From Peptococcaceae bacterium BRH_c23 (GTDB taxonomy: Bacteria > Bacillota_B > Desulfitobacteriia > Desulfitobacteriales > Desulfitobacteriaceae): a DNA stretch of 19,567 bases. The stretch covers positions 1-19,567 of the forward strand of contig LADV01000020.1 in NCBI GenBank assembly GCA_000961805.1, in the 5' to 3' direction. Below, piece after piece: positions 10,829 to 19,567 of this stretch (positions within the stretch are counted from its first letter, which is position 1; every line of letters starts with the position of its first letter). A program made the translations under genes and the position numbers. The notes under the pieces are model-generated. The model was given only the letters and a program-made list of their open reading frames with translations, was not told where the DNA came from and ran no database searches.

Positions 10829-12262
10829 TCATCTACCGAACCCCGTAACACCGGGATGGGTGGCAATAAACTCCTTATCAATTCCTTTCTCCGGACTAAT
10901 CACATGTACGGCACAACCAGTGCACGGATCAAAGGAGTGGATAATCCGCAACAATTCGATCGGTCGCGCCGGATCCGCTACTTGGGTGCCGATCAAAGCC
11001 TGTTCTAAGGCCCCGGGGACTCCCTTATCATCCCTGGGGGATGCATTCCAGCAGGTAGGGGTAATTACCTGGTAGGAACTTATTTTTTGGTTACTAATGT
11101 TTAGCCAATGACCCAGTCCTCCCCGAGGAGCATCCGTTAACCCAATGCCGGTACCGGAATTAGGTGGGGTAGTAATTTTTTTATAAGCACTAGGTCCAGG
11201 AACAAGCTAATTCATCCATCCCGTAAGGGCTTCCGCAATCTTTTGGGTTTCCAGAGCCCGAGCTTTAATGCGGTCCATAACAGACACCTTGCCATTGTAA
11301 TAACCGTTTATATTCATCCGGGCTAAGGGACCAAGTTCATACACCTGTTCTTCATAACGGGGCGCCTTTAACCAGGTGTAAGCTCCGCTTTTACCGTAAG
11401 CAGGAGTTGTTTGGCCCTTCGCCGGGTTTAAGCCACTGGGGCTGGAATAGTACGAATACTGAACATATTCACTAATTTTCTCGGGATCCACACTTTCACT
11501 TACACCTTGGGCGAGTCGTCCACTCTTAAACAGCATACCGTCTGCCTGATCAAAAACACCATAACTGAGGAAATTGCCCGGGCCTTGACCTATAGTAAAG
11601 TAATCGCTGTATGCGCTCGTTAAGATCTCTACATCCGGCAAATATTTATTGTTTATAAAGTCTTTGACGGTTGCCAGGTAGCTCTTCATTTGAGTTATTA
11701 GCCCGGCCTCGAGGGGCATCGTTACGCCACCGGGAGCTATACTCATTACGTGAGGTACCCTACCGGCTAGGATAGCTACCATTTCCTGTGCCTGACGACG
11801 GACTTTTAGGCCTTCCAAGTAATTATTGATTAGGCGTTGAGTGTTCGAACTATTGATCCGCATGTCCACATCATACCCGGGTGACCAAGGATTCAGTTGG
11901 GGACCAATAATATAATCCATTAAACTCAAATGATAAAAATGCAGGATATGGTCTTGTAAATAGTTTCCTGCCTGAATGACAGTACGCTGCAAAGTGGCTT
12001 GTGAACTTGGTGTAAAACCCATGGCTTGTTCATTGGCTTTAACCGAAGCAATGGCATGGGAGACAGGGCAAACCCCGCAAATCCGTTGCGTAATGTGGAT
12101 CGCATCCCAAGGATGTCGATCCTTCAAGATGTTTTCCATATCCCTAAACAAGTTACCTGTCATATAGGCCGTAGTGACTTTATTGCTGCTGTCCAGCTCT
12201 ACCTTTACTTTTAAGTGACCTTCTACCCTGGTTACCGGGTCTATAGTAATAGTATTTGGCAT
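10829..12262 (-). pseudogene. NiFe hydrogenase large subunit, interrupted by an in-frame TAG
   Basis: Catalytic subunit of an exported (group 1-like) uptake NiFe hydrogenase. ATG 12262 opens MPNTITIDPVTRVEGH, and the N-terminal nickel ligands Cys62 and Cys65 are in RICGVCPVSHA. At codon 352 (11207-11209) an in-frame TAG follows GWMN. The same frame then continues for 125 residues, LVPGPSAYKK through TDAPRGGLGHW to the C-terminal motif DPCTGCAVH, and stops at 10829-10831. After that His, 24 residues remain that fit the peptide cut off by the maturation protease. The 351-residue product would lack two of four metal ligands and cannot be active. Restored length, 477, is short for group 1. The substitution is consistent with GAG or CAG changed to TAG. 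Operon order: small subunit, large subunit, tatA. Confidence 0.9.
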
Positions 12263-12310
12263 AATTCTGATTCCTTTCTTAAGTTAAGTTACTAATCAGC
12301 TAGTTTTATA

Positions 12311-13323
12311 CTAATACGACTTTGATTTAGACTTGATTGAATTCACGATGCTGGAACTCTGGTTAGAACTCGTGCCACCGGAGTCCATTCCACCAGAGCC
12401 CATTCCTCCAGAACCCATGTCGCCTGAGCCCATGCCACCGTAATAAAAAGGCCCTTCTGGAAAACTCGGGGAAGCGCAACTTATGCACTGCATGTCAGCC
12501 TTATCAATGCACCAGTTCACACCGTTATTCCATTTAAGGAGGGGACAGCTGAAAGTAGTTTCAGGTCCTTTACAACCAATCCCTCTATAGCAGCCAAAAG
12601 CACCGTATTGATCCACCATTTCTGTATGACGGCGAGGACAATTATTGTGGACTGTAGTTGGGTAATATTGAGTTGGCCTACCATAACTATCTAATTTAGG
12701 AAGGCCTTTGGTTAACAAAGTTACTACCGTTCCAACCATGGTTTCCGGATGAGCCGGGCAAGCCGGCAAATTTATGATTGGGTTCCGTGTTCTCCCATTC
12801 AAAACTTCTTTTACTGTCTTAATACCTGTGTAAGTAGACGGTTTGACTACTCCGCCAAAAGAAGCACACGTGCCTATAGCCAAAATATATTTCGCTTTTG
12901 GTCCTAATTCATTAACCGCATCGAGCATAGTCCAATTTTTTCCTTTTTGTCTGCGATGACACAGTAATTACCATTTGTGCTTGTCGGAATACCACCTTCG
13001 ATACAGAGAATAAATTCCCCATTATAATTAGTGGATGTGTCAATAATTGAAGTAACCGCCAGATCACCGACTGCGGTGGCCAGATTAGGATGATACTTAA
13101 CGCTGATTTGGTTCAACAGCACATCATCGATTGTGGTCGGCTGGGTGGCGTTAAGTAGAGAAATAGAACAACCCGTACACATTGAACCTTGTAGCCATAT
13201 AACCGGTGGGCTGGTGCTTGCAGCCAAAACCTCCTCTACTTTGATTAAATCTAAAGAAGTAAGTCCTAAGGCCACAGCAGATCCGGCAGCCCACTTCATA
13301 AAATCTCGTCGACTAATTTGCAT
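12311..13323 (-). pseudogene. NiFe hydrogenase small subunit with Tat signal, one-base frameshift
   Basis: Electron-transfer subunit of the exported hydrogenase. ATG 13323 follows GGAGG. The N-terminus carries a twin-arginine signal (SRRDFMKW, then a hydrophobic stretch ending near LAAS). The first frame contains CTGCSIS, a proximal cluster ligand pair, and ends as KEKIGLCSMRLMN. The remainder continues in another frame from WTMLDAVNELGPKA, with GTCASFGG, PACPAHPE, HNNCPRR, GCYRGIGCKGP and CPLLKW...C...CISC, so all three Fe-S cluster ligand sets are present. The break maps to the A6 run at 12936-12941; one additional A would restore a DKKEKNWTML reading. The C-terminus is a Gly-Met-Ser-rich repeat tail (GSGGM units) and not a membrane helix. 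The gene lies 48 bases before the large subunit. Confidence 0.9.
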
Positions 13324-15737: not shown

Positions 15738-15759
15738 TGATTTTATATATTTAAAATCA
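15738..15759. repeat. AT-rich perfect dyad at the end of the second tatC
   Basis: TGATTTTA and TAAAATCA are separated by TATATT and overlap the tatC stop codon. It could be a weak hairpin or a protein site between tatC and the protease gene. Confidence 0.35.
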
Positions 15760-16497
15760 TACCTCTTGTACAAATGACTGTTTTTTTCTTGCGGAAACTC
15801 TTTTATAGCTAGAAATCAGCAAAATGCTCAATTCGTATAAACCAAGTACCGGAAGACTGGCTGCAACTAAAGTGAAGACATCCGGTGTCGGAGTAAGTAG
15901 AGCGGTAACTATGACAACCGCAAGGAATGCCACTTTCCGTTTTTCTTTCAGTGTTTTGGAACTAATGATTCCCACTAAAGCCAGAACGCCCATGATTAAC
16001 GGTAATTCAAAGACTGCCCCCATCGCTATAATCAGCATGATTACAAAGGAAAAGTAGAGGCTAGCTGATAAGGTCGCCACCATATACTGTTGACCTGTGT
16101 TTAATAAAAACTTTAGTGTCATGGGAATGATGACCATATAACCAAACAAGACACCCGCTGCAAAGAGAATTGTGGCGACAGGGATTACCCAATAAACGAT
16201 TCTCCTTTGAGCATCGGTGAGTAAAGGAGCTGCAAGACGGATGGACTGCCAAAGGATTAAAGGGAAGCACACGATGAAGGCACTGAAAAACACCACCTTT
16301 ATTTTGGCCATGAACCCTTCCACAGGGCTGAGAAAAACCAGTTCCCGTTGGCCCAGAGGTTCGGTTAATAACTCCACTAAAACATCAGCCTTAAGATAGA
16401 ATACCAAAGTGACCACCATCAGCGCCAAAATAGACAAGGCTAAGACTTTGCGCGCTCGCTCCAACCGATCAATGATTTTGACGTAATTAATAATCAT
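15757..16497 (-). CDS. tatC: divergent TatC-family protein with degenerate signal-peptide site
   Basis: Polytopic membrane protein of 246 residues with the six-helix TatC pattern and the late conserved block LTPTPDVFTLVAASLPVLGLYE. The N-terminal cytoplasmic motif that reads HLGELRYR in the neighbouring TatC is here DRLERARK: a Glu can be aligned but the Leu-Arg pair is lost. The first cytoplasmic loop has Gln97 where the neighbour has Glu96. In E. coli TatC the N-terminal Glu/Arg and this loop Glu contact the twin-arginine signal. A partner role, for example in a mixed TatC complex, is therefore more likely than independent substrate recognition. The frame is complete, with no stop or shift, and GGGGTGAG precedes ATG 16497. 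Probably cotranscribed with the first tatC. Confidence 0.85.
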   Translation of the reverse strand: MIINYVKIIDRLERARKVLALSILALMVVTLVFYLKADVLVELLTEPLGQRELVFLSPVEGFMAKIKVVFFSAFIVCFPLILWQSIRLAAPLLTDAQRRIVYWVIPVATILFAAGVLFGYMVIIPMTLKFLLNTGQQYMVATLSASLYFSFVIMLIIAMGAVFELPLIMGVLALVGIISSKTLKEKRKVAFLAVVIVTALLTPTPDVFTLVAASLPVLGLYELSILLISSYKRVSARKKQSFVQEV

Positions 16498-16766: not shown

Positions 16767-16904
16767 TTACGCCCTCTCTTTCATAGCCTCACGTTTCTTG
16801 CGAATATCTCTGATAGGATAATCTTTTTTTATACTTCCTATTTCCTTGGTCAGCGTTTATCCATTATGCTCATGATTACCTGTGAATTCTTTTGTCTCAT
16901 GCAT
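16767..16904 (-). pseudogene. possible tiny ORF with in-frame TAA, between the tatC genes
   Basis: ATG 16904 overlaps the end of the upstream tatC by eight bases and reads MHETKEFTGNHEHNG, then TAA (16857-16859). The same frame then reads TLTKEIGSIKKDYPIRDIRK and a charged end (KREAMKERA) to TAA at 16767, one base before the next ATG. The close packing and the charged, repeat-free composition hint at a real small gene that was broken, but I recognise no family. It could be chance. Confidence 0.3.
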
Positions 16905-17628
16905 AGTTAACATTTTCTTTCTTCATCTTAATTTTTTCCATAAAGTAAATAACCCAAATGCTCGATTCGTAGAGAAGAAGTACTGGGGCACAAATGGCCA
17001 CTAGAGTTAAAACGTCTGGGGTAGGTACGATCAGTCCTATGAGGAGAAGGACTCCAATGTAGCCATATATTCTCGTATTTCTAAGCTTTCTGGATTTTAC
17101 TAAGCCCAGCCGGCTGAGGGCTATCATTACGATGGGAATTTCAAAAAACACACCCATAGCAAGTGATAATAATAATAGGAAAGAAAAATATTTAACACCA
17201 AGAAGCATAGGGTTAAGGTAGCCCTCCCCAACCCCCATAAAAAATCGTAGTACCAAAGGGAAAATCACTTGATTACCGAAGCCTGCTCCCAAAGCAAAAA
17301 GGATCAAACCCGGCGGAATGGCAAAGAAAATTGTCTTCCGTTCTTGTCGAGTACAGCCTGGCATAATAAACGCTATGGCCTGGTAAATAAGCACCGGCAG
17401 GCTAACCATAATCCCCCCTACGACTGCTATTTGAATAGTTGTAAAAAAGCCATCAGCAGGACCGGTAAAGTACAGTTGCTTTCCACTTAATGGAGCCGTA
17501 AGCCACATGATAACTTTATTCATATTTAGATAAATCACGGTGGTGCCGGCGAGCAGCGCCACAAATGAAATAATGAGTCGGTATCTAAGCTCCCCCAAAT
17601 GATCTGTCACTGTCATTTGCTTATCCAT
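16897..17628 (-). CDS. tatC: Sec-independent translocase protein TatC
   Basis: Twin-arginine receptor in the membrane, 243 residues, six helices. ATG 17628 follows AAGGAGGGG. The N-terminal recognition motif is canonical (DHLGELRYR, E13-L14-R15). The first cytoplasmic loop carries Glu96 (CTRQERK), and the conserved IVPTPDVLTLVAICAPVLLLYE block lies near the C-terminus. It should bind the SRRDFMK signal of the hydrogenase small subunit. It is the first gene after the shared promoter element at 17704-17760, which supports co-regulation with the hydrogenase operon. A divergent second TatC lies 399 bases downstream, separated by two tiny broken ORFs. The loop has Pro-Gly-Cys-Thr where Gly-Leu is more usual. 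Confidence 0.94.
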   Translation of the reverse strand: MDKQMTVTDHLGELRYRLIISFVALLAGTTVIYLNMNKVIMWLTAPLSGKQLYFTGPADGFFTTIQIAVVGGIMVSLPVLIYQAIAFIMPGCTRQERKTIFFAIPPGLILFALGAGFGNQVIFPLVLRFFMGVGEGYLNPMLLGVKYFSFLLLLSLAMGVFFEIPIVMIALSRLGLVKSRKLRNTRIYGYIGVLLLIGLIVPTPDVLTLVAICAPVLLLYESSIWVIYFMEKIKMKKENVNYA

Positions 17629-17883: not shown

Positions 17884-18891
17884 CTAACAGATACGCGGCA
17901 GTTGATCAACTACAAGGACATCAACAATCCTCTTTCCACCAATGCCTGTCTTAAGGTACACTTTACCGACAGGGCCATCCACCACTTCACCGATTACCGC
18001 AGCATCCTGCCCCAGCGGGTGTTTTCGAATGACATTCAGAGCTGCCTCAACCTGCGGTTGCGGCACCACGGTCAGAAACTTACCTTCGTTTGCCAGATAT
18101 AGAGGGTCTAATCCTAAGATATCACAGGCTGACTTCACACTTCCCTGAACGGGCAGGGAATCCTCATCTAAAGCAATACCCACACCGCTCTGCACGGCAA
18201 TTTCATTGAGAGTCGTCGCTACTCCACCCCGTGTAGGGTCCCTTAGCACCCTAATACCTGGCACGTCCAACAATAACTCTTGGATTAACCCGTTGAGCGG
18301 AGCACAGTCACTGCGGAGAAGATTATTGAAATTAAGTTCCGACCGCCTGGCCATAATGGTCATGCCATGGTCGCCTATCGTACCATTAATGATGATCTTA
18401 TTCCCTGGTCTAGCGTAACTTCCTGACACATCAGCCCCAGGAAGTATGACCCCTATACCTGCCGTATTGATAAAAAGCTGGTCAGCACAACCTTTAGGCA
18501 CGACCTTCGTATCACCGGTAACAATTAGCACACCGGCTACTTTAGCCGTATCTGCCATAGACTGAACAATTTGCCTAAGGCTTGCCATCGGAAACCCTTC
18601 TTCGATAATAAAGCCTGCACTTAAATACAAGGGTCGGGCACCGCTCACAGCTAGATCATTGACTGTTCCACAAACGGCCAGTTTCCCGATGTCTCCGCCA
18701 GGGAAACTCAGGGGAGAGATTACATAACTATCTGTGGTAAACGCAAGTCTCTCCCCGGGTGTCGAAAATCCGGCTGCATCGTTCATCTCATCAAGTAAGT
18801 CATTACGAAAATAGTGATGGAAAAGCTCTTTCACAAGTCTCTGGGTGTATTTGCCGCCGTTACCATGACCGAGCAATACTTTTTCTTCCAT
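17884..18891 (-). CDS. hypE: hydrogenase maturation factor HypE (carbamoyl dehydratase)
   Basis: Dimeric cytosolic enzyme of the PurM/ThiL fold, 335 residues, that uses ATP to turn a thiocarbamoyl group on its C-terminal Cys into thiocyanate, the CN donor for the hydrogenase iron; it works with HypF, HypC and HypD. The sequence is complete: MEEKVLLGHGNGGKYTQRLV at the N-terminus, GDTKVVPKGCADQLFINT and RDPTRGGVATTLNEIA in the core, and PRIC with Cys335 as the last residue. ATG 18891 has AAGGAGG six bases upstream. hypE usually follows hypD within a few bases; here 397 bases of structured non-coding sequence lie between them, but its ribosome binding site is preserved. Confidence 0.95.
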   Translation of the reverse strand: MEEKVLLGHGNGGKYTQRLVKELFHHYFRNDLLDEMNDAAGFSTPGERLAFTTDSYVISPLSFPGGDIGKLAVCGTVNDLAVSGARPLYLSAGFIIEEGFPMASLRQIVQSMADTAKVAGVLIVTGDTKVVPKGCADQLFINTAGIGVILPGADVSGSYARPGNKIIINGTIGDHGMTIMARRSELNFNNLLRSDCAPLNGLIQELLLDVPGIRVLRDPTRGGVATTLNEIAVQSGVGIALDEDSLPVQGSVKSACDILGLDPLYLANEGKFLTVVPQPQVEAALNVIRKHPLGQDAAVIGEVVDGPVGKVYLKTGIGGKRIVDVLVVDQLPRIC

Positions 18892-18901
18892 ACGTTCCTC
18901 C

Positions 18902-19288
18902 TTAAATAGCTAGGACACCAGAACAAGAACACTCATCTGTGTACTTATCCAAGCGCCAAGTAACTTCTACACGAGTCTCTGGGAGTCTTCCCTGGCCCAC
19001 AGGGTCCGCGATCACACGGCGCGACGCCTTTGCGTAAGTCGTAGCCAAACTCGGCTTTAATCCGCTTTCATAAAGCAGGGCGGGAAACAGGGACGTTTCC
19101 CGCCGACCATGCGACAAGGTCCCCTCCCGCCATCCTTGGCTCCGGTGACACTAGACCATCCATGGTCGTCGGATGTCGCTTTGGTCGGAACACTCACCCG
19201 TGTTCCGCCCTGCCCGCTTGCATAACGGATTGAAGCCCAAGTTTGGCACGACGAGCGCACGGCTGAGCAAGTGTCTCGCGACCTACCT
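18902..19288 (-). other. unidentified structured insertion between hypD and hypE
   Basis: By eye this stretch is richer in G+C than the surrounding genes, and it has no credible coding frame. Two arms resemble each other in inverted orientation: roughly 19170-19258 on the minus strand and 19031-19115 on the plus strand share TCGT-GCCAAACT-GG-CTT-AATCCG and AGGGCGG-AAC. Each arm has its own hairpin: GGCGGGAAAC/GTTTCCCGCC (19078-19103) and CGGAACAC/GTGTTCCG (19183-19208), both with six-base loops. The arms can also pair with each other into one long stem. The hypE-side part (18902-19030) is unmatched. A duplicated-looking TAAAGGTAGG / TTTAAGGAGG borders it. It may be a MITE-like mobile element or an RNA; I do not recognise a family. 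Confidence 0.6.
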
Positions 19289-19567
19289 TTACTGATGGTA
19301 CTTATAATAAGCACCACAGGTGCCCTCTGAGGAAACCATGCACGGCCCTACAGGTTTTTCTGGATTGCATACGGTTTTAAATAAAGAGCAATCGGGAGGG
19401 GTTTTTTTTCCTTTGAGAATCTCGCCGCATAGGCAACCTGCTGGACCGGCGTTTTGGCTTTCCTCTAGGCCAAAAACTAAGCGCGCGTCGTAGTTCGAGT
19501 ATTCCGGCTTGAGTACTAGGCCGGACCCTGGTATCGTTCCTATACCCCGCCAGGTGACGTCTGCTAA
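19289..19567 (-). CDS. hypD: hydrogenase maturation factor HypD, C-terminal part
   Basis: The last 92 codons of HypD enter from the right window edge and end at TAA 19289-19291. HypD is the Fe-S scaffold on which, with HypC, the Fe(CN)2CO unit is assembled. The visible part has WRGIGTIPGSGL, then the cysteine-rich domain: CLCGEILKGKKTPPDC, FKTVCNPEKPVGPCMVSSEGTC and the ending AYYKYHQ, all typical of HypD C-termini. No break is seen in the visible part. It lies upstream of hypE in the same direction but is separated from it by the structured insertion. Confidence 0.93.
   Translation of the reverse strand, partial: LADVTWRGIGTIPGSGLVLKPEYSNYDARLVFGLEESQNAGPAGCLCGEILKGKKTPPDCSLFKTVCNPEKPVGPCMVSSEGTCGAYYKYHQ

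What the first reader, a model, noticed from the sequence alone, without database searches (positions are those of the whole stretch)
18902..19288. Structured, inverted-module insertion splitting the hypD-hypE pair
hypD and hypE normally sit nearly end to end. Here 397 bases separate them while the hypE ribosome binding site is kept. The insert contains two diverged copies of one ~80-base module facing each other. Each copy carries a hairpin at the same place (stems of 10 and 8 pairs, six-base loops). The stem sequences differ between copies but pairing is kept in both, which is the sign of selection on structure. The two arms can also pair with each other, giving alternative folds. It could be an undescribed MITE-like palindromic element, a folded-DNA substrate for a transposase or recombinase, or a structured RNA tuning hypE expression.
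Basis: partly seen in the sequence, partly recalled or inferred. Interest (0 to 1): 0.78.

Follow-up and report, generated by a model that had tools for sequence, protein, structure and literature searches.

The report
Nested palindromic repeat between hypD-hypE
A folded, repeated DNA element related to a known but unexplained RNA motif (TwoAYGGAY) has landed between two hydrogenase-maturation genes of a sulfate-reducing bacterium; its hairpin tips look like docking sites for the regulator CsrA, and a second small element has inserted into one of those tips.

Summary
In detail: 397 bases separate hypD and hypE, and both hairpins exist. The insert is one copy (19001-19284, GGA strand +) of a dispersed compound palindrome. 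A covariance model built from 19 relatives scores it 177.9 bits and matches 35 of 45 Desulfitobacteriaceae genomes, with up to 53 matches in one. Six of 20 relative-bearing loci exceed the Rfam TwoAYGGAY (RF01731) threshold; the window copy does not, plausibly in part because a 51-bp module X (19120-19170) interrupts its second conserved loop. X lies in such loops, same spot and orientation, in 14 of 18 distinct copies. The loops read CA(N)GGA(N)G on one strand, the CsrA motif; GGA columns change about five times less than their surroundings, and element-bearing genomes mostly carry CsrA. Against a classical RNA: stems hold A.C as often as G.T, no promoter enrichment, and the GGA strand is usually antisense to the nearby gene. 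Identity is solid; CsrA binding is plausible, unproven, and already proposed for TwoAYGGAY (PMC4333381). Dispersal, nesting and loop-targeted X are what this adds.

The parts
17884..18891 (-). hypE, downstream gene
   Evidence: ORF; closest homolog 95%, several homologs named HypE
18897..18902 (-). hypE Shine-Dalgarno AGGAGG, kept
   Evidence: sequence
19001..19284 (+). the element; + is the strand whose conserved loops read GGA
   Evidence: model R1, 177.9 bits, E 1.1e-49; the reverse strand also scores 37 bits because the stem is symmetric; best relative L137:8389-8658, 82% over 297
19001..19078 (+). 5' arm of the long outer stem (terminal inverted repeat, then AGCCAAACT box)
19079..19104 (+). 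hairpin P2, loop AGGGAC (C-AGGGAC-G fits CANGGANG)
   Evidence: conserved in family
19103..19119 (+). 5' half of hairpin P3, ending GCGACAAGG
19120..19170 (+). module X, 51 bp, inside the P3 loop; on the - strand it carries hairpins whose tips read AAGGAT and ATGGAT
19171..19188 (+). 3' half of hairpin P3, starting GGATGTCGC
19186..19207 (+). accessory hairpin P4, loop TCACCC
   Evidence: insertion at this place in 3 of 30 aligned copies
19208..19284 (+). 3' arm of the long outer stem, ending 4 bases from the hypD stop codon
19289..19567 (-). 3' part of hypD, upstream gene
   Evidence: PF01924, E 1e-37

Best explanation
The insert is one copy of a dispersed, non-coding compound palindrome of Desulfitobacteriaceae, homologous to elements that Rfam calls TwoAYGGAY. 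SHOWN: a long outer stem carries two adjacent hairpins whose loops keep CA(N)GGA(N)G on one strand; copies are spread over many loci, often in tandem and often just after stop codons; the window copy has a second 51-bp palindromic module, X, inside the GGA loop of its second conserved hairpin. INFERRED: the loops are kept because transcripts of the element bind the regulator CsrA, so copies act as dispersed CsrA-binding sites (sponge or local mRNA sites). In this window, read-through hypD-hypE mRNA would show the two GGA hairpins of X (tips AAGGAT and ATGGAT) rather than P2. The element is presumed to spread as a non-autonomous DNA repeat by an unidentified machinery.
For: Homology: window 177.9 bits with R1; 24 of 45 family genomes by BLAST, 35 of 45 by model, 32 of 348 genomes sampled across the phylum (only 6 candidates scored per genome). 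TwoAYGGAY over threshold in 6 of 20 relative-bearing loci. Dispersal: 53 matches in one genome; copies there up to 97% identical. Loops: of 377 predicted apical loops in 145 copies, 248 hold GGA, 28 TCC, 101 neither; control windows 152 GGA, 228 TCC, 1 both, 1632 neither. 232 of the 247 GGA loops parsed read CA(N)GGA (printed before that script stopped). CA.?GGA.?G: 262 on this strand, 34 on the other, mononucleotide-shuffle mean 41.8, 144 distinct copies. In 103 of the 145 copies, GGA columns changed in 15 of 595 cells against 912 of 6683 in the other P2-P3 core columns (3137 of 20734 over all other columns). CsrA consensus RUACARGGAUGU and the ANGGAN hexaloop: passages of PMC7652899. CsrA match in 31 of 32 element-positive and 217 of 316 element-negative genomes of the phylum sample, p 3e-4; in the family in 30 of 35 element-positive and 5 of 10 negative genomes, p 0.03, and in 27 of 27 genomes with at least 4 matches against 8 of 18 others, p 1.4e-5, a cut-off I chose after seeing the data.
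Against: Stems show G.T:A.C 172:179, or 115:90 at a stricter cut (four alignments, six copies counted twice). With RNAalifold structures the ratio is 136:72 on the GGA strand and 51:88 with structures of the other strand, against 16:0 for SAM riboswitches; in the procedure that control gave only 9:5 and 4:5. No promoter enrichment (7.48 against 7.60 shuffled, n=139). The right-hand gene is antisense to the GGA strand in 98 of 136 copies, so GGA loops are not usually in the mRNA. Five genomes with element matches lack a CsrA match, and most copies looked at there keep GGA loops. GGA columns were picked because the consensus reads CA(N)GGA, and 15 to 32 other core columns per alignment are invariant too. 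The Fisher tests and counts are not corrected for kinship, tandem copies or genome completeness; one of the 31 CsrA matches is weak (8.4e-5). No expression or binding data exist here.
Confidence: 0.5

Rival explanations
1. Purely DNA-level mobile repeat (REP/BIME/MITE-like). The hairpins with GGA loops are recognised as folded single strands by a transposase or recombinase, with no RNA role. X is a smaller element of the same kind that targets these loops.
For: G.T:A.C parity; dispersal and near-identical copies; mosaic flanks of about 350-450 bp on one side in one genome; no promoter; X at one spot and orientation in 14 loops, 7 in P2 and 7 in P3 (13 of 14 have GG before X, 13 of 14 GGA after it).
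Against: Terminal repeats differ between subfamilies while loops stay, the reverse of ordinary MITEs. No transposase was sought systematically and none was tied to it. The association with CsrA is not predicted.
Confidence: 0.35
2. Cis-acting mRNA element: the hyp transcript folds it and it changes hypE expression or mRNA 3'-end stability.
For: It sits in the hyp operon with the hypE ribosome site kept. Copies lie close after stop codons: for 98 right-hand antisense genes the median distance is 38 bp. The hyp-sense strand of X can form hairpins with GGA loops.
Against: Copies lie beside many different genes; orientation is mixed; hypDE-specific conservation was not seen but could not be searched well, since close relatives of this locus could not be fetched; G.T:A.C parity.
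Confidence: 0.1
3. Autonomous small RNA gene of CsrB type, transcribed along the GGA strand from its own promoter.
For: Two or more CsrA-like hairpins in most copies, as in CsrB; proposed for TwoAYGGAY in PMC4333381 (passages); tandem copies.
Against: No sigma-70-like enrichment upstream (15 of 139 with score 9 or more against 16 on the other strand) and few T-runs downstream (9 of 139 against 26 on the other strand). The scan covers only one promoter type.
Confidence: 0.05

Closest known systems
TwoAYGGAY RNA (Rfam RF01731)
   Same: Outer stem and two adjacent hairpins with GGA loops; 9 matches in 6 of 20 relative-bearing loci exceed the 43-bit gathering score (L175 55.3, L155 50.3 and 45.0, L157 50.2 and 48.7, L149 48.8, L156 45.1, L158 43.9 and 43.4).
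   Different: The window copy gives no match: its P3 loop is split by X and P2 reads ARGGAY. Eight further relatives score 34.6-42.8, and 6 of the 20 loci, including X-less ones (L150, L160), give no TwoAYGGAY match at E up to 1, so X need not be the only reason. Rfam types it Cis-reg; here it behaves as a dispersed, nested repeat.
CsrB/CsrC/RsmX/Y/Z sponge RNAs
   Same: GGA in hairpin loops, CA(N)GGA(N)G (consensus from PMC7652899 passages).
   Different: Many dispersed copies, long near-perfect stem, no promoter signal, and the GGA strand is mostly antisense to neighbours.
REP/BIME and MITE repeats (features recalled)
   Same: Intergenic, palindromic, multi-copy, tandem, near 3' ends of genes.
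   Different: About 216 bp in the short form, with conserved loops rather than conserved ends; no GTAG tag or RAYT gene was tested.
IS1397-type insertion into palindrome loops (recalled; PMC1525189 on insertion sequences in REPs seen in a listing and abstract start only)
   Same: An element inserting into palindromic repeats.
   Different: X is 51 bp and non-coding.

Membership tests
TwoAYGGAY RF01731 | Score at or above the gathering threshold of 43 bits | tested here: not met
   No match for the window at gathering score nor for 18850-19340 at E up to 10; some relatives do match
TwoAYGGAY RF01731 | Two adjacent hairpins with intact AYGGAY loops (meaning of the name recalled) | tested here: not met
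   P2 loop is AGGGAC; P3 loop is interrupted by X at 19120-19170
TwoAYGGAY RF01731 | Homology to accepted members | tested here: met
   R1, built from 19 relatives that include places matched by RF01731, scores the window 177.9 bits
CsrA-binding RNA | GGA in hairpin loops fitting the CsrA motif | tested here: met
   P2 on +, X hairpins on -; family statistics
CsrA-binding RNA | Binding to CsrA | not testable with these tools
   none
CsrA-binding RNA | Transcription | not testable with these tools
   Only a promoter scan, negative
MITE | Terminal inverted repeats | tested here: met
   GAGGGTCGCGA...TCGCGACCCTC-like ends (3 mismatches allowed) found in 36 of 77 collected pieces; other ends in other subfamilies
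MITE | Target-site duplication | tested here: inconclusive
   None seen by eye in printed flanks of G311/G312 copies; the flanks themselves are partly conserved
MITE | Ends shared with an autonomous transposon | not tested
   No systematic transposase search
REP | GTAG/CGTC tag and TnpA-REP partner | not tested
   none

The most novel reading that the evidence does not exclude
A mobile, self-spreading family of CsrA decoys: each new copy scatters CsrA-binding hairpins through the genome, and module X is a loop-targeting mini-element whose insertion into a GGA loop silences that site and moves the CsrA-binding loops to the opposite strand, so that in this window the hyp mRNA rather than its antisense displays them.
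Probability: 0.2. Interest if true: 0.8.

Novelty: new variant of a known kind. Interest (0 to 1): 0.5.

Why it matters
TwoAYGGAY has been an orphan RNA motif since 2010 (PMC2864571), suspected of CsrA binding (PMC4333381, 2014) but not tested in any passage read here. Showing that its relatives in one bacterial family are dispersed, nested repeats with strongly kept CsrA-like loops turns it into a testable case of a repeat family feeding a global regulator. It would also offer a CsrB-like antagonist in Bacillota, where the passages read here name the protein FliW. Exact insertion of X into GGA loops would point to a hairpin-loop-specific recombination activity.

Tried and rejected
Plasmid and phage collections: no match. 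IMG/VR, one exact 19-base pattern: none. Ten genomes behind hypE loci searched with the window insert by BLAST: none. The 86-aa reading frame inside the insert was not pursued. Other Rfam classes: no match in the window. Strand-neutral G.T/A.C test: its riboswitch control was too small to calibrate it, so parity is suggestive only. CsrA-less genomes as a decay test: mixed; G337's one copy has lost GGA in both conserved loops, one of two loops is lost in L287, the others mostly keep it. Replication-strand bias: G164 and G133 look biased, G311 does not (hand count; origins not located); left open. Papers: listings and term searches showed no description of this repeat in Desulfosporosinus or Desulfitobacterium; only that library was searched and no paper was read whole.

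Full report
Observation. The insert is as described: 397 bases between the hypD stop and the hypE start, hypE ribosome site kept, hairpins at 19079-19104 and 19186-19207, facing arms 71% complementary, and folding far stronger than shuffles on RNA and DNA parameters (z -5.5 and -6.2). Ordinary hypD-hypE gaps are short: 57 of 72 measurable loci (of 80 fetched) have 150 bases or less.

Host. No whole genome is held for the window. HypE is 95% to a metagenome protein and at best 60% to the species-level genome collection. PtsI is 84% to genome G321 of the family searched. That family is taken to be Desulfitobacteriaceae from cimA of G329, 97% to Desulfosporosinus sp. FKA, and from G322, whose contig length equals that listed for the Desulfosporosinus orientis hit.

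What it is. BLAST of the insert found related sequence in 3 of 299 genomes of a phylum sample, one of them (G289) only through module X. A 177-base core from one relative matched 24 of 45 genomes of the family. Aligned copies (30, 19 short ones) show one architecture: terminal inverted repeats (36 of 77 pieces passed a search for them), a long stem with an AGCCAAACT/AGTTTGGC box, then two adjacent hairpins P2 and P3. RNAalifold gives 73 pairs, 23 with double compensatory changes. The model R1 scores the window at 177.9 bits, 19001-19284, and matches 35 of 45 family genomes and 32 of 348 phylum genomes; both searches scored only some candidates per genome, so these are lower bounds, and a symmetric copy can be counted on both strands. 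Copies are often tandem and recur near the same genes in several genomes, for instance after cimA (cimA named for G329, elsewhere judged by size and gene order). In one 4.3-Mb genome 53 matches are dispersed, three of them partial, with pairs up to 97% identical, and repeat flanks extend as a mosaic about 350-450 bp on one side.

Known relative. An Rfam scan of 20 relative-bearing loci at E up to 1 gave 17 TwoAYGGAY matches in 14 loci: 9 matches in 6 loci at or above the 43-bit threshold, 8 below it; 6 loci gave none. A scan of five sources at threshold returned three of the same places again and nothing in the window. PMC2864571 lists TwoAYGGAY as probably an RNA and probably not cis-regulatory (passages). 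PMC4333381 proposes that it binds CsrA (passages).

Loops. In 145 copies predicted apical loops hold GGA in 248 of 377, TCC in 28, neither in 101; control windows from the same loci gave 152 GGA, 228 TCC, 1 both and 1632 neither. Of 247 GGA loops parsed, 232 read CA(N)GGA. In four alignments holding 103 of the 145 copies, GGA columns differ from consensus in 15 of 595 cells, the other P2-P3 core columns in 912 of 6683, all other columns in 3137 of 20734. The cells are not independent, the GGA columns were picked by their consensus, and 15 to 32 other core columns per alignment are invariant too. The motif matches the CsrA consensus RUACARGGAUGU and the ANGGAN hexaloop (PMC7652899 passages). 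CsrA matches occur in 31 of 32 element-positive and 217 of 316 element-negative genomes of the phylum sample (p 3e-4). In the family they occur in 30 of 35 positive and 5 of 10 negative genomes (p 0.03), and in all 27 genomes with four or more matches against 8 of 18 others (p 1.4e-5, cut-off chosen afterwards). These tests ignore kinship and completeness.

Evidence against a simple RNA. In stems, G.T and A.C cells are equal: 172:179, or 115:90 at a stricter cut. RNAalifold structures gave 136:72 on the GGA strand and 51:88 with structures of the other strand, while SAM riboswitches from the same family gave 16:0; the exact procedure gave too few events on that control. No promoter enrichment was seen upstream on the GGA strand (139 copies). 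Of 136 copies with both neighbours called by a crude ORF rule, gene orientations relative to the GGA strand were (-,-) 79, (+,+) 34, (+,-) 19, (-,+) 4; the right-hand antisense gene ends a median 38 bp away (98 cases, 63 within 60 bp). Tandem and orthologous copies are among these, so they are not independent. Five family genomes with element matches have no CsrA match, and most copies looked at there keep GGA loops, though G337's has lost them.

Module X. A 51-bp module fills the P3 loop of the window copy (19120-19170). Among 18 distinct copies in held loci, 14 lie in a P2 (7) or P3 (7) loop at the same position and in the same orientation; 13 of the 14 have GG before it and 13 of the 14 GGA after it; the other 4 lie in a different repeat context. 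Without X the window P3 loop would resemble the ACAAGGATGT loops of relatives (inference). On the opposite strand X carries hairpins whose tips read AAGGAT and ATGGAT, so in this copy CsrA-like loops lie on the hyp-sense strand; the first of them forms in the predicted fold of the whole strand, both in X alone.

Verdict. Identity is well supported: a dispersed palindromic repeat homologous to TwoAYGGAY elements, extended by a nested module; the window copy itself fails the Rfam threshold. CsrA binding is the best single reading of the loops but is inferred, with real evidence against an autonomous RNA gene.

Noticed in passing
window 11207-13323, - strand: The [NiFe] hydrogenase looks broken in this contig: the small subunit is split into two overlapping frames (12904-13323 and 12311-12928), and the large subunit has an in-frame stop at 11207 with what looks by eye like its C-terminal part continuing after it. 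Could be decay or assembly error.
   Followed up: partly
window 15757-16497 and 16897-17628: Two tatC genes in a row between the hydrogenase and hyp genes.
   Followed up: no
G164:C3 3.79-4.55 Mb of 4.93 Mb: The 14 places found in this genome all lie in one 0.8-Mb stretch, 13 on + and 1 on - in a hand count; in G312 and G133 matches also crowd the last third to half of the sequence, in G311 they do not.
   Followed up: partly
L146:18330-18458, L144:13963-14013, L096:4504-4554: Module X also sits in a second, different repeat context (flank like ATAAGTGCAACTAAGC), apparently in both orientations.
   Followed up: partly
L124, L168: A further module Y with its own GGA hairpins extends P3 in two genomes.
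   Followed up: no
L177 (G337, no CsrA match): The only copy found in this genome has lost GGA in both conserved loops.
   Followed up: partly
L092:2235-3772: An IS200/IS605-like pair of ORFs (short transposase-like and TnpB-like, judged by eye) lies about 1 kb from tandem copies.
   Followed up: no
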